From Listeria innocua (lineage in GTDB: Bacteria > Bacillota > Bacilli > Lactobacillales > Listeriaceae), in assembly GCF_028596125.1 (NCBI RefSeq), contig NZ_CP117229.1, positions 2,154,001 to 2,218,000 of the forward strand: a stretch of 64,000 bases of DNA, given 5' to 3'. Each line of letters starts with the position of its first letter. Positions within the stretch are counted from its first letter, which is position 1. Below are positions 9,743-25,888 of this stretch, piece by piece. The notes below the pieces were generated by a model. It saw only the letters and a list, made by a program, of their open reading frames with translations, was not told the DNA's origin and did no database searches. The translations under genes were made by a program, and so were the position numbers.

Positions 9743-11464
9743 TTAACTCAATCTTTTACGTTTTAATCGATATGCTAAATAAAGGAAGGAAGCCCCAAAT
9801 AATGTAATATACCATGCCATACTCGATGAATCACTAGTTTTCGCATTTTTTTCAGCTTTGTTATTTGTTGTCGCTGTTTTTTGAACTGAATTTGTATCAT
9901 CAAAATCTGGTTTTGCTAATTTTGGTCCAGCATTATTATTGTTTGCTAAATTGCTAGTATTCAGGTCATCATTTTTCACAGGTTCTTGTAACGTTACATC
10001 CTTCCCTGTAATATCTTTGATTGATGCAGGATCTAATTTAACTTGAACAGTATATTCATGGTCATAAGAGAAGCCTGGCATATTTTCAATTAATACATGT
10101 GTTTTTACATCCGTATTAGCCGTACCATCTTTCACAGGATATTTTACAGTTCTGGTATTTTTGTTAATATCACCAGAAACCACTTCCATATCCTTCCAAA
10201 CGCCATTTTGTTTATACTGGAAAGTCTTAATCCAACTACTATTTGTTAAAGTTAAATAAACATATGGTTGATTATTTTCTACTTTGATTATAGCTGGTTT
10301 CATTACGTAACTTTCCATCATGGAAGTTTCATTTGTTCCGTCTTTAAAAACATCAAAATCTATCGAGTACGTATGATTGTTTAGTAAATTTTTAGGGTCA
10401 ACTACTACTGGTTTGCTTGGTGTCGTAGGCGGTGTTGTCACTGGAGGATTAGTTGTGCCTGGATCTGGGTCTGGTTTCGTTACTGGTGGATTTGTTTCAC
10501 CTGGATCTACTGGAGGTGTTACATCACTACCCGGGTAAGAACTCGCCGCTTGTGCTTTCGTTGTATCAAAAACATATCGGAAGTCTGCTTGCCCTTTATA
10601 TACAGAACCATTGAATGGTGCTTCATAATTCACATGAGCCGCAAGTGGTTGATTTAAGTCCTCCACTTCAAATTCAACAATTCGTGTGTTAGCGTCTTTA
10701 TCTTCTGAAACCACTTTTACATCTTGCAAAGCTCCAGAAATTTGTGTTTTTAAAGCTGTTACTGTTTTATTATCATTAACCGTCATTGCAACAGTTTTCT
10801 TACCATTTTTCACTTTCAACCATGCAGGATTATCAAAATAATTTTGCATACTTGAATTACTGTCATCATTTGCTTTTTTCGCTACAAACGGAATCGTATA
10901 AATTCCATCTGCCAGAGTTACCGGTGTAGTAACAGCCGGTTCAGAAATAACTTTGAACGTACTCGGATCAATTGTTAAGTCCACTTGATACCAATGATCG
11001 TAACTAATTGCATCTACTTTAATGTGCATATAAGAATAAATAATATCATCTAAAGAACTAAGCTTGAATTTCTCTACACGCGTATTATTCGCTGCATCCG
11101 TACTAACAGTTTGAACATCTTGGTAGCTATCTTGATAAACTTCTGCTTGTGCTGGTTTTGCAGGACGAGTTCCATCTTTTGAAACCGCCATTGTTTGCCA
11201 ATAGTTACTGTTTGTAATAGTTAAGTACATATATGGTTGACCATTTTCAACTTTAATTGTAGCAGTATGGTCAATATATTTATCCGCTTCTGAAGATTCT
11301 TTCGTTGTCTTACCAGTGTTATCTTTATAAAAATTCACTTGAACCTGATACTCCCCGCCATCTTTTAAACGAGAATCAGCCGCACTGGCAAATCCAGGTA
11401 TCAATTGAAAAATAAGTGTCAAAGCTAAAAATGCTACTAAACCTTTTTTCCATAATTTCTTCAT
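9743..11464 (-). CDS. hbp2: Heme-binding surface protein Hbp2/SvpA with three NEAT domains
   Basis: The product is 573 residues. Signal peptide 1-28 (ends GFASA). NEAT domains lie at about 35-175, 190-305 and 360-485. Two carry the YxxxY heme strand motif (YDHWY, YDHEY) and a lip segment with Ser (TITNSNYW, TLTNSSWI). The middle one has neither in the usual form. A Pro/Thr-rich linker rich in DPG and NPP separates domains 2 and 3. The C-terminal sorting signal is NAKTS (540-544), then a hydrophobic stretch and RLKRKR, a sortase B-type substrate. ATG start behind AAAGGGGGA. By established work in L. monocytogenes, Hbp2 is both secreted and wall-bound and captures heme from hemoglobin. It sits 12 nt after hbp1; its ribosome site overlaps the hbp1 stop. 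Confidence 0.95.
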   Translation of the reverse strand: MKKLWKKGLVAFLALTLIFQLIPGFASAADSRLKDGGEYQVQVNFYKDNTGKTTKESSEADKYIDHTATIKVENGQPYMYLTITNSNYWQTMAVSKDGTRPAKPAQAEVYQDSYQDVQTVSTDAANNTRVEKFKLSSLDDIIYSYMHIKVDAISYDHWYQVDLTIDPSTFKVISEPAVTTPVTLADGIYTIPFVAKKANDDSNSSMQNYFDNPAWLKVKNGKKTVAMTVNDNKTVTALKTQISGALQDVKVVSEDKDANTRIVEFEVEDLNQPLAAHVNYEAPFNGSVYKGQADFRYVFDTTKAQAASSYPGSDVTPPVDPGETNPPVTKPDPDPGTTNPPVTTPPTTPSKPVVVDPKNLLNNHTYSIDFDVFKDGTNETSMMESYVMKPAIIKVENNQPYVYLTLTNSSWIKTFQYKQNGVWKDMEVVSGDINKNTRTVKYPVKDGTANTDVKTHVLIENMPGFSYDHEYTVQVKLDPASIKDITGKDVTLQEPVKNDDLNTSNLANNNNAGPKLAKPDFDDTNSVQKTATTNNKAEKNAKTSDSSSMAWYITLFGASFLYLAYRLKRKRLS

Positions 11465-12318: not shown

Positions 12319-12585
12319 CTACTCATTCTCACTTATCTTGAGAAAATGTTCATATAACAATTCACCTTTTAAAGTTATTGTATATCTTTTTTCTGTAATA
12401 TTGTTGTTTCTCGTTAAATATCCATTTTCTTCCAACCAGTACAGTGTAAGTAATACTTCATTCTTTGTATAATTGCGAAGATCCCCAAAATCAATCACTT
12501 CAAGCGACATATCATTAATTTTTGTATCTACACTTCTAGCAAAAAGAAGGACTTCTCGTAACAACTTTTCATCTTCAAATTCCAT
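12319..12585 (-). CDS. Small hypothetical protein, possible winged-helix fold (lmo2187-like)
   Basis: The product is 88 residues, with AAAGGAGG and good spacing before the ATG. The first half is helical and acidic. The second half reads YTKNEVLLTLYWLEENGYLTRNN...KRYTITLKGELLYEHF, which looks like helix-turn-helix plus a beta wing, as in DUF2513-like proteins. There are no catalytic residues or membrane segments. It has its own terminator and lies between the small RNA and the heme operon, so a regulatory role is possible but unproven. Confidence 0.75.
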   Translation of the reverse strand: MEFEDEKLLREVLLFARSVDTKINDMSLEVIDFGDLRNYTKNEVLLTLYWLEENGYLTRNNNITEKRYTITLKGELLYEHFLKISENE

Positions 12586-12626
12586 TTTTAATCCTCCTTT
12601 AATTCTAAGTTAGTAAACATAAATAA

Positions 12627-12728
12627 CGTAAAAAGCCGTAGCTAAATGCCACGGCTTCTTACAGCGCAATCAAAAGGAGAAATTCACACAATCAAATAAA
12701 GGGGGTATTTGTTTGTGATTTATTTCAC
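12627..12728 (-). ncRNA. Candidate RsaE/RoxS-family small regulatory RNA
   Basis: Transcribed on the minus strand from a TTGAAT-17-TATATT promoter (-35 at 12758-12763, -10 at 12735-12740) to a terminator at 12628-12657, about 100 nt. The 5' end can fold as GUGA/UCAC. Next comes a perfect 6-bp hairpin CAAAUA/UAUUUG displaying the loop CCCCCUU, an anti-Shine-Dalgarno sequence. A second pyrimidine site, UUUCUCCUUUU, follows. From memory this order (UCAC, ACAAA-ACCCC-UUU hairpin, UUUCUCC site, terminator) is that of staphylococcal RsaE and Bacillus RoxS. RoxS also lies near pepF (yjbG). Those RNAs respond to respiration/redox control and repress central-metabolism mRNAs at the ribosome site. No protein reading frame on this strand fits. 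Confidence 0.72.
12628..12657 (-). terminator. Intrinsic terminator of the small RNA
   Basis: AAGCCGTAGC (12633-12642) pairs with GCCACGGCTT (12648-12657), one mismatch, loop 5 nt. Five T follow on the minus strand. The opposite direction has no good T-tail, so it acts on the minus strand. Confidence 0.82.
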
Positions 12729-12773
12729 GGTTATAATATACCATATAACCTCACATAATTCAATAGTTCACAT
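12729..12773 (-). promoter_or_regulatory. Promoter and possible operators of the small RNA
   Basis: TTGAAT (12758-12763) and TATATT (12735-12740), spacer 17. An inverted repeat GGTTATA (12729-12735) / TATAACC (12744-12750) surrounds the -10. A ResD-like half site, ATGTGAACTATT on the minus strand, lies at about 12762-12773, overlapping or just upstream of the -35. The promoter is seen directly; regulator assignments are inference from RoxS/RsaE. Confidence 0.55.
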
Positions 12774-12831: not shown

Positions 12832-12873
12832 AAAAAAAAAGACACGATGCATATCAGTTGCAACCGTGTCTTT
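12832..12873 (-). terminator. Terminator after pepF
   Basis: AAAGACACGATGC (12838-12850) pairs with GCAACCGTGTCTTT (12860-12873) with a small bulge. T-rich tails exist on both strands; the minus strand has the longer one. Confidence 0.85.
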
Positions 12874-12895: not shown

Positions 12896-14701
12896 TTATT
12901 TGACTAGTTTTTCTAATTCATCTAATCTTTGTTCAAAAACTTTTAAAGCGTCATCCACAGGGTTCGGTGTTGCCATATCAACTCCTGCTTTTTTCAACAC
13001 CTCAATTGGATAATCAGAACTTCCTGCTTTCAAAAAGTCAATATAAGCTGTTACCGCCTCTTGACCTTCAGTTAAAATTTTCGCACTTAAAGCTGATGCT
13101 GCCGAAAACCCAGTCGCATATTGGAAAACATAATAGTTCATGTAAAAATGTGGAATACGAGACCATTCATAACCAATTTCAGCATCATAAACAATTGCAT
13201 CACCATAATATTTCTTATTAATATCAAAGTAAGTTTCTGTTAAATAATCAGCTGTTAAAGCAACTCCTTCTTGATCTGCTTGATGAATAGCATGCTCAAA
13301 CTCAGCAAATTGCGTTTGACGGAATACAGTTCCTTTAAATCCATCTAAATAATGATTTAACAAATAAGCGCGTACTTTCGGATCATCATATTTTTTCAAA
13401 AGATAGTCCGTCAGTAAATTTTCATTAGTCGTAGAAGCAACTTCTGCTAAGAAAATCGAATAATCTCCATAAACAAATGGTTGATTCTTCCTTGTATAGT
13501 AACTGTGAACACTATGTCCAAGTTCATGAGCTAGCGTATAAACATTATTAATATTATCTTGCCAATTCAATAAAATATATGGATTTGTACTATATGAACC
13601 AGAAGAGTATGCCCCGCTTCGTTTACCTTTATTTTCCATCACATCAATCCAGCGGCTATCAAAAGCTTCTTTTAAAATCGATTGATATTCATCCCCAAGT
13701 GGCTTCAAGGCTTCAAGGACAATCTCTTTTGCTTCCTTATAAGTGAATTCCAAATTAACATCATCAGAAAGCGGTGTATAAAGATCATACATATGAAGTT
13801 CTTCTAATCCAAGCAATTCTTTACGTAATTTTACATAGCGATGAAGTAAACTAGCATTATTGTTTACTGATTTTAATAAAGAGTCATAAACTGTCTCCGG
13901 AATATGATTTCCTGAAAGTGCTGCCTCACGAGCGGACTTATATCCACGTGTAGAAGCATAAAAATTAGATTTTTTCACTTGCCCATTTAAAGTAGATGCT
14001 AAGGTATTCTTTAATCCTTCATAAACAGAATACACACCAAGAAACGCGTCTTTACGAACACGCGGGTCATTACTTTCTAACAACTTACCATAACGACCAT
14101 GCGTGATTTCAATCTCTTCGCCATTTTCATCTTTAATTGTAGGGAACTTCATGTCCGCATTATTTAATGTGTTAAACGTATTAGAAGAACTACCCAAAAC
14201 TTCGCCAGCATTCGCTAATAATGCCTCTTCTTTTTCACTTAAAATATAAGGTCGGCTTAAGTTTAATTCCTCTAATAAGTGTGCATATAGTTGCAAATCT
14301 TTATTTTCATTTAAAAATTGTTTTAAAACACTCTCATCCATCGCTAAAATTTCAGGATCATAATAAGATAATGCAGACATTAGTTTTGTAACTAAACTTC
14401 CTGCCCGACTATGTAATCCTTGGTATTTCGCATTAGCTGTATCCTGGTCCATTTTCAAATGAGCATAAACATATAAATTACTAATTAAATCATAAGCTTT
14501 ATCACGAAATTGTAGTGCTTCATAAAGCGTTTGGCTACTTTCCGCTAGACGACCTTTAAATTGATCGCTTTCTTCTGTGATTTTTTGTAATTCTGTAAAG
14601 GCTTTTTCCCAAGCCTCATCATTTGGATAAATAGTAGTCAAATCCCAAGTTAAATTTTCTGGAACTTCTTCTCTTAAAGGTAATGCATTCGTTTTACTCA
14701 A
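12896..14701 (-). CDS. pepF: Oligoendopeptidase F (M3 family zinc metallopeptidase)
   Basis: The product is 601 residues. I start at TTG 14699-14701 (MSKTNALPLREEVPENLTWDL) because GGGGG lies 8 nt upstream; the open frame extends 5 codons further without a ribosome site. The zinc motif HELGH is at 392-396 in LAHELGHSVHSYY, with a downstream Glu in SIFLAEVASTTNE as third ligand. Length equals the family norm. PepF is cytoplasmic and cuts peptides of about 7-17 residues; proximity to opp suggests it uses imported peptides. The order pepF-coiA-mecA-spxA is conserved in Bacillus. Confidence 0.95.
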   Translation of the reverse strand: MSKTNALPLREEVPENLTWDLTTIYPNDEAWEKAFTELQKITEESDQFKGRLAESSQTLYEALQFRDKAYDLISNLYVYAHLKMDQDTANAKYQGLHSRAGSLVTKLMSALSYYDPEILAMDESVLKQFLNENKDLQLYAHLLEELNLSRPYILSEKEEALLANAGEVLGSSSNTFNTLNNADMKFPTIKDENGEEIEITHGRYGKLLESNDPRVRKDAFLGVYSVYEGLKNTLASTLNGQVKKSNFYASTRGYKSAREAALSGNHIPETVYDSLLKSVNNNASLLHRYVKLRKELLGLEELHMYDLYTPLSDDVNLEFTYKEAKEIVLEALKPLGDEYQSILKEAFDSRWIDVMENKGKRSGAYSSGSYSTNPYILLNWQDNINNVYTLAHELGHSVHSYYTRKNQPFVYGDYSIFLAEVASTTNENLLTDYLLKKYDDPKVRAYLLNHYLDGFKGTVFRQTQFAEFEHAIHQADQEGVALTADYLTETYFDINKKYYGDAIVYDAEIGYEWSRIPHFYMNYYVFQYATGFSAASALSAKILTEGQEAVTAYIDFLKAGSSDYPIEVLKKAGVDMATPNPVDDALKVFEQRLDELEKLVK

Positions 14702-14773
14702 TATAAAAACCCCCAACCATAGTCATTTTGTTTTTATTATGAGCCAAAATAACTAAAAATGCAAAACAGATGT

Positions 14774-24583: not shown

Positions 24584-24599
24584 GAACTTAATATAACTG

Positions 24600-25888
<1,289 letters not shown>

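What the first reader, a model, noticed from the sequence alone, without database searches (positions are those of the whole stretch)
12627..12728. RsaE/RoxS-family small RNA between pepF and the heme locus
Seen: a self-contained minus-strand unit of about 100 nt with TTGAAT-17-TATATT promoter, a 6-bp hairpin showing a CCCCCUU loop, a second UUUCUCC site and a G/C terminator with U-tail. Known (from memory): RsaE of Staphylococcus and RoxS of Bacillus share this order of elements and bind ribosome sites of metabolic mRNAs; RoxS lies near yjbG (pepF). Inference: this is the Listeria orthologue, which would place a redox-linked metabolic sRNA next to Spx/MecA and heme genes.
Basis: partly seen in the sequence, partly recalled or inferred. 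Interest (0 to 1): 0.78.

Follow-up and report, generated by a model that had tools for sequence, protein, structure and literature searches.

The report
Listeria RsaE-like RNA doubling as phage site
A short Listeria RNA already catalogued as Rli61 looks like the Listeria counterpart of the metabolic regulator RsaE/RoxS of Staphylococcus and Bacillus, but it lacks one of its pairing boxes, and in some other Listeria species its second half is where viruses appear to insert into the chromosome.

Summary
Window 12624-12729(-) carries a promoter, a C-rich hairpin, UUUCUCC and a terminator. It is Rfam rli61 (RF01485, 134.8 bits) and aligns over its full length to RsaE/RoxS (RF01820) at 58 bits, E 6.7e-9, below the curated 79.

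Orthology is well supported: pepF lies directly upstream in 34 of 34 intact Listeria loci and 29 of the 30 best-scoring RsaE loci, and start palindrome, TGTGAA box, loop and UUUCUCC are shared.

Listeria lacks CCCAUCCCC after UUUCUCC (CRR3 by position), the main pairing box of B. subtilis RoxS, seen in 30 of 30 strong loci; CCCAU is in 18 of 20 weak ones. And the gene's 3' half looks like a prophage attachment site: four Listeria species carry a second, displaced 3' half, an integrase or remnant lies beside rli61 in two of them and one further genome, and outer flanks match siblings' empty sites.

Best model: a trans-acting, probably Rex-controlled sRNA pairing with Shine-Dalgarno sequences. 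Its only exact 12-nt loop complement elsewhere in the genome is the SD of neighbouring hbp2, suggestive but unproven. Nothing was measured.

The parts
12624..12729 (-). Rli61 sRNA gene (RsaE/RoxS orthologue); start at 12729/12728 inferred from the -10
   Evidence: RF01485 134.8 bits; RF01820 58 bits over 12629-12728
12735..12763 (-). promoter TTGAAT-17-TATATT, TG before the -10
   Evidence: conserved columns
12767..12772 (-). TGTGAA box just upstream of the -35; ResD/SrrA-like by recall only
   Evidence: 34 of 34 Listeria and 30 of 30 RsaE upstream regions hold TGTGA[A/C]; mononucleotide shuffles 5-6%
12715..12728 (-). Rex-like palindrome GTGAAATAAATCAC at the predicted start
   Evidence: only zero-mismatch match of GTGAAATNAATCACA in the own genome; position as reported for RoxS
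12687..12717 (-). C-rich hairpin, loop CCCCCUU (CRR1 equivalent, by position)
12676..12682 (-). UUUCUCC box (CRR2 equivalent, by position)
   Evidence: invariant in the rows
12662..12676 (-). CUUUUGAUUGCGCUG, where the other RsaE RNAs read carry CCCAU(CCCC) (CRR3 by position)
   Evidence: 21-mer TTTCTCCTTTTGATTGCGCTG: 22 stretches in the genome-contig scan, all titled Listeria
12627..12663 (-). intrinsic terminator hairpin
12624..12698 (-). rli61 nt 32 to 3' end: the segment duplicated as attachment core in other Listeria; one copy only here
12896..14716 (-). pepF, conserved upstream neighbour
12319..12585 (-). DUF3116 gene (88 aa) downstream; found in 15 of 30 Listeria loci L004-L033
11471..11482 (-). 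AAATAAAGGGGG at the SD of hbp2: 12-nt exact complement of CCCCCUUUAUUU (candidate target)
9743..11464 (-). hbp2 (lmo2185-like), candidate target gene
   Evidence: gene naming by recall of the locus and PMC5880928

Best explanation
Rli61 is the Listeria orthologue, by descent, of RsaE/RoxS: a free-standing trans-acting sRNA made from its own promoter behind pepF, probably repressed by Rex through a palindrome at the start and perhaps activated by ResD through the TGTGAA box. It would act by pairing its CCCCCUU loop and its UUUCUCC/CUUUU stretch with purine-rich Shine-Dalgarno sequences, blocking translation. It is a divergent variant because the CRR3 pairing box is missing. Its gene has a second role: the 3' half (nt 32 to terminator) is the attachment site of a tyrosine-integrase prophage lineage in several other Listeria species. 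The phage carries a copy of that half, so insertion rebuilds an intact sRNA at attL and leaves a displaced, promoterless 3' half at attR. Shown by sequence: homology, synteny, conservation, missing CRR3, duplicated 3' halves, empty-site matches. Inferred: transcription, Rex/ResD control, SD pairing, hbp2 as target, the recombination itself.
For: Full-length RF01820 alignment and RF01485. rli61 over cut-off in 34 of 36 Listeriaceae genomes. pepF upstream in 34 of 34 intact Listeria loci and 29 of 30 best RsaE loci. Shared start motif, loop and UUUCUCC and TGTGA[A/C] box. Downstream gene not conserved: DUF3116 in 15 of 30 loci. Att site: core twice in 3 of 36 genomes, plus a second copy with a deletion in L. 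goaensis. Integrase beside rli61 in L. grandensis, remnants in L. rocourtiae (76%, 51 aa) and G023 (59%, 32 aa, one stop), the highest identities in the listed part. Prophage genes follow in L. grandensis; lysis and tail genes lie near the displaced 3' half in an IMG/VR record. Outer (attR) flank against an empty sibling site 84.7, 92.5, 92.2 and 61.5%, against 47-52% for inner (attL) flanks. Rex and CRR data for RoxS: passages of PMC5419742.
Against: The RsaE score is below the curated cut-off in all 34 Listeria genomes that match. CRR3 is absent. No expression data were available. The promoter score alone equals chance. The palindrome is not a perfect Rex consensus (consensus by recall). The L. 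grandensis integrase is split into two ORFs, its element spans two contigs, and the inserts of L. kieliensis and L. goaensis hold no integrase. No Listeria record of the phage collection with only the 3' half was found, and the IMG/VR record shows no match to the integrase, though it may be a fragment. The L. kieliensis outer flank does not match L. aquatica (50.4%), whose own flank also differs from L. valentina's (46.2%). In hbp2 the AAATAA part of the match is the last codons of hbp1, so its conservation is not independent evidence.
Confidence: 0.85

Rival explanations
1. Rli61 is a cis-acting 5' leader of the downstream DUF3116 gene, as Rfam's type 'Cis-reg' suggests, rather than a trans-acting sRNA.
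For: Rfam types RF01485 as Cis-reg; in the window the DUF3116 ORF starts 38 nt after the end of the rli61 match, on the same strand.
Against: DUF3116 is found downstream in only 15 of 30 Listeria loci while the RNA is nearly invariant; a 16-pair covarying terminator separates them; DUF3116 was not found within 1500 nt in any of the 30 RsaE loci.
Confidence: 0.07
2. A non-homologous C-rich sRNA that converged on an RsaE-like form.
For: Score below the RsaE cut-off; CRR3 absent and terminator sequences dissimilar.
Against: Full-length co-linear alignment at E 6.7e-9 plus the same pepF neighbour and the same promoter-proximal elements.
Confidence: 0.04
3. The duplicated 3' halves are terminator exchanges or assembly artefacts rather than phage attachment sites.
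For: Several genomes are drafts; the L. kieliensis and L. goaensis inserts carry no integrase.
Against: Shared left boundary at TATTTGATTG in four elements, integrase and prophage genes next to rli61 in L. grandensis, an independent IMG/VR record with phage genes beside the displaced half, and sibling matches on the outer flank only.
Confidence: 0.06

Closest known systems
RsaE (Staphylococcus) / RoxS (Bacillus), Rfam RF01820
   Same: pepF-linked position, palindrome at the start, TGTGA[A/C] box upstream, C-rich hairpin loop, UUUCUCC, intrinsic terminator
   Different: Scores below the cut-off; lacks CCCAUCCCC after UUUCUCC (CRR3 by position), the box RoxS mainly uses on ppnKB and yflS; loop CCCCC instead of CCCC
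Listeria sRNA rli61, Rfam RF01485
   Same: The same locus, 134.8 bits
   Different: Typed in Rfam as Cis-reg and listed without a clan; the evidence here favours a trans-acting RsaE orthologue
Pneumococcal csRNA3 (ccnC) with prophage phiOXC141 (PMC9764711, passages)
   Same: An sRNA gene serves as attB; insertion makes a hybrid RNA at attL with a phage-derived 3' part
   Different: Unrelated RNA and host; there the hybrid was shown to act more strongly; here the attL copies compared differ from empty sites mainly in the terminator, apart from 2 changes in L. rocourtiae
Salmonella ryeA/ryeB with PhiW104 (PMC7380047, passages)
   Same: Prophage attachment in the last base pairs of an sRNA gene
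   Different: Different RNA; there an overlapping opposite-strand RNA is altered

Membership tests
RsaE/RoxS | Full-length match to the RF01820 covariance model | tested here: met
   Model 1-112, E 6.7e-9 in a 601-base search; E 7.5e-9 in the own genome
RsaE/RoxS | Score at or above Rfam's gathering cut-off (79) | tested here: not met
   58 bits. The cut-off also misses 31 of 113 matching Bacilli genomes, this one included; I read 18 of the other 30 and all 18 hold CCCAU
RsaE/RoxS | Gene directly downstream of pepF | tested here: met
RsaE/RoxS | C-rich hairpin loop CCCC(C)UUU | tested here: met
RsaE/RoxS | UUUCUCC box | tested here: met
   invariant; some low-scoring relatives vary here
RsaE/RoxS | CRR3, CCCAUCCCC(UUUG) after UUUCUCC | tested here: not met
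   34 of 34 Listeria loci read TTTCTCCTTTTGATTGCGCTG; 3 of them have CCCAT further on, in the terminator. UCUCCCAUCCCC in 30 of 30 strong RsaE loci, CCCAU in 18 of 20 weak ones
RsaE/RoxS | Rex site just downstream of the start | tested here: inconclusive
   Conserved palindrome GTGAAATAAATCAC; binding not testable here
RsaE/RoxS | Induction by NO or NADH through ResD/SrrA and Rex; pairing with metabolic mRNAs | not testable with these tools
   No expression or interaction data
Site-specific integration (gene-restoring, as at tRNA genes) | Regenerated target gene at one end, displaced fragment at the other | tested here: met
   L. grandensis, L. rocourtiae, L. kieliensis; definition from the start of the Islander abstract, PMC4383910
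Site-specific integration (gene-restoring, as at tRNA genes) | Tyrosine integrase gene within the element | tested here: met
   Next to rli61 in L. grandensis (split in two ORFs) and as a remnant in L. rocourtiae; not in the inserts of L. kieliensis and L. goaensis
Site-specific integration (gene-restoring, as at tRNA genes) | Excision shown and attP sequenced | not testable with these tools
   No Listeria phage record with the core alone

The most novel reading that the evidence does not exclude
The Listeria lineage lost the CRR3 pairing box of its core redox sRNA because a phage att exchange replaced the RNA's 3' half. Since then phages have repeatedly rewritten the 3' half of this regulator at lysogeny, while its retained loop acquired a neighbouring heme-uptake gene, hbp2, as a target.
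Probability: 0.12. Interest if true: 0.82.

Novelty: new variant of a known kind. Interest (0 to 1): 0.56.

Why it matters
It would join two Rfam entries (rli61, RsaE) into one lineage and give Listeria a redox sRNA with a testable Rex link. In the open-access library searched the link was not found: Rli61 has 0 hits; in the 6 papers holding RsaE, RoxS and Listeria the mentions of Listeria shown do not make it; a Listeria sRNA review has 0 occurrences of RsaE or RoxS in its main text. It also adds a core metabolic sRNA to the sRNA genes used as prophage attachment sites, and offers a candidate for the unexplained heme-dependent repression of hbp1-hbp2 described in PMC5880928 (passages).

Tried and rejected
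Plain RsaE membership by score: not met. Cis-regulatory leader of DUF3116: rejected on lack of conservation. Secondary RsaE or rli61 hits elsewhere in the own genome (25.1 bits or less): judged chance. Rfam Plastid-GIID1-clpP hit on the plus strand (27.5 against cut-off 140): judged chance. The L. valentina second rli61 hit (31.7 bits, L037) was dropped: no core. 'Listeria phage LM 4-11-1/4-14-1' records (5 of 93 phage records hit, 20 of 93 listed): the one read (OR846723) carries mecA, coiA, pepF, rli61 and DUF3116 in host order, so it looks like host DNA, not attP. RsaE in the order search outside Listeria: 2 of 395 genomes matched weakly (L268, L269) and lack the loop, UUUCUCC and CCCAU patterns. 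Genus g2 of the family (Brochothrix by my inference): no rli61 in 2 of 2 and no RsaE motif by simple patterns within 1500 nt of pepF in 2 of 2.

Target tests that I do not count as evidence: AAAGGGGGN{2,13}ATG gives 28 matches against 6 for the reversed pattern, but any SD-like word would be enriched; AAATAAAGGGGG with up to 1 mismatch is not enriched (19 against 28). hbp2 ranks 2 of 53 window ORFs in duplex plus opening energy, and 9 of 500 shuffled sRNAs pair as well; starts were chosen by script. GTGAAATNAATCACA with up to 2 mismatches: 64 against 33 reversed. The motif flags use simple patterns, so some 'False' rows are real variants.

Full report
What is there. On the minus strand at 12624-12729 lies a self-contained unit: TGTGAA box (12772-12767), promoter TTGAAT-17-TATATT (12763-12735), a palindrome GTGAAATAAATCAC at the predicted start, a hairpin with a CCCCCUU loop, UUUCUCC, and a 16-pair terminator. 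The fold is far below shuffles (z -6.6, 0 of 200). Rfam calls it rli61 at 134.8 bits and, in a permissive search, RsaE/RoxS over the full model at 58 bits, E 6.7e-9, under the cut-off of 79.

Conservation. rli61 passes its cut-off in 34 of 36 Listeriaceae genomes; the two misses are both members of one other genus, Brochothrix by my inference only. In 26 aligned copies (8 of the 34 intact copies left out beforehand as close relatives) nt 1-68 are almost fixed, and the terminator covaries with 6 doubly changed pairs, while helices 1 and 2 hardly vary. Of 33 loci caught by a script pattern (L. goaensis missed), there are four versions of the first 68 nt: 23, 8, 1 and 1.

Orthology with RsaE/RoxS. 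In a sample of 398 Bacilli genomes 113 match RF01820, 82 over the cut-off. Of the 30 best-scoring loci, 29 have pepF upstream on the same strand within the 1500 nt held, as do 34 of 34 intact Listeria loci. An alignment of 6 Listeria and 16 RsaE sequences, chosen by me, shows TGAA, TCACA, CCCCTTT, TTTG, GTG and ATTTCTCC invariant. TGTGA[A/C] upstream is present in 34 of 34 Listeria and 30 of 30 RsaE loci against 5-6% in shuffles, at -44 in Listeria and mostly at -56 to -68 elsewhere. RoxS in B. subtilis is repressed by Rex bound just after the start and induced through ResDE (PMC5419742 and PMC8216469, passages). The Listeria palindrome sits in the same place and is the only zero-mismatch GTGAAATNAATCACA of its genome. 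The Listeria Rex paper predicts Rex sites at 48 genes or operons; its main text has no occurrence of 'sRNA' or 'RoxS' (PMC8389512, passages).

What differs. [quoted passage not shown]). The stretch I equate with CRR3 by position, CCCAUCCCC after UUUCUCC, is in 30 of 30 strong loci; CCCAU is in 18 of 20 low-scoring stretches, the two misses being probable chance hits outside Listeria. All 34 Listeria loci read TTTCTCCTTTTGATTGCGCTG instead; 3 of them have CCCAT further on, inside the terminator. That 21-mer was found in 22 stretches of the genome collection, all titled Listeria.

An attachment site. L. goaensis has a second copy with a deletion between two TTTGATTG repeats. The second copies lack promoter and C-rich hairpin and share their left boundary with the others (TATTTGATTG, nt 32). 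They lie 1.6 kb (L. rocourtiae), 5.2 kb (L. kieliensis) and 2.8 kb (L. goaensis) from the intact gene, or on another contig (L. grandensis). In L. grandensis the ORFs after rli61 include a tyrosine integrase split in two, a repressor-like HTH protein, terminase, portal, capsid, tape measure, holin and amidase. Its second copy lies beside mntH; in five species without an insert mntH begins 0.4-1.0 kb after the rli61 core, and in L. rocourtiae it follows the displaced copy. In the listed part the integrase's highest identities after itself are remnants directly 3' of rli61 in L. rocourtiae (76% over 51 aa) and G023 (59% over 32 aa); the best longer relative is 42%, and short matches elsewhere reach 51%. 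A 22-kb IMG/VR record carries the same 3' half without the 5' half, near endolysin, holin and tail genes, and its outer flank is 92.2% identical to the empty site of L. fleischmannii. The outer flanks of L. kieliensis and L. rocourtiae match L. valentina and L. cornellensis at 92.5 and 84.7%, and that of L. grandensis matches L. cornellensis at 61.5%, against 47-52% for the inner flanks; L. kieliensis against L. aquatica gives only 50.4%, but L. aquatica also differs from L. valentina (46.2%). So the element seems to bring nt 32 to the terminator and to rebuild the sRNA at attL. No second copy was seen in the window's genome or the other 14 loci with DUF3116. sRNA genes as attachment sites are known: ccnC/csRNA3 in pneumococci (PMC9764711, passages) and ryeA/ryeB in Salmonella (PMC7380047, passages).

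How it most likely works. By analogy with RsaE/RoxS, the loop and the UUUCUCC stretch pair with SD sequences. In the own genome AAATAAAGGGGG, the complement of CCCCCUUUAUUU, occurs exactly twice: at rli61 itself and at the SD of hbp2, 1.2 kb downstream. It is kept in 12 of 15 loci with hbp2, but AAATAA is the end of hbp1, so only the G-run speaks for itself, and one locus has AGGAGG. hbp2 ranks 2 of 53 window ORFs; 9 of 500 shuffled sRNAs pair as well. LhrC4 binds this mRNA in vitro, with the SD as predicted site, and heme represses hbp1-hbp2 by an unknown route (PMC5880928, passages). Other candidates, named by my reading of the protein sequence only, include a quinol oxidase subunit I and a 5-formyltetrahydrofolate cyclo-ligase.

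Verdict. A divergent Listeria orthologue of RsaE/RoxS already catalogued as Rli61, whose 3' half looks like a prophage attachment site in several other Listeria species. I saw no report of that role in the listings or in the passages read; only open-access papers are held. Expression, control, targets and recombination remain to be tested.

Noticed in passing
window 24596-24826 (+): T-box leader (RF00230, 118.1 bits).
   Followed up: no
L034 6003-7823 (-) and L036 2945-4771 (-): Between rli61 and its displaced 3' half, L. kieliensis and L. goaensis carry a 606/608-aa toxin-like gene (the L. kieliensis one has a TNT domain by Pfam) with small genes beside it and no integrase; perhaps a relic of the prophage.
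   Followed up: partly
L033 1621-1692: A 2.1-Mb Listeria genome (G023) has a short integrase remnant directly 3' of rli61 without a second core copy.
   Followed up: partly
window 12698-12662 (-): The core holds a direct repeat TTTGATTG 22 nt apart; the second copy in L. goaensis is deleted between the repeats. Meaning unknown, possibly integrase binding sites.
   Followed up: no
L254 (G730:C14:85915-86916): Two tandem RsaE-like copies 480 bp apart in one Bacilli genome.
   Followed up: no
OR846723 and four similar phage records; NZ_LR134401, NZ_CP030101 in the plasmid collection: Records filed as Listeria phage or plasmid that match the rli61 region; OR846723 shows the host gene order, the others were not read.
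   Followed up: partly
window 12841-12870 (-): Separate terminator-like hairpin with T-run behind pepF, upstream of the rli61 promoter (by eye).
   Followed up: no
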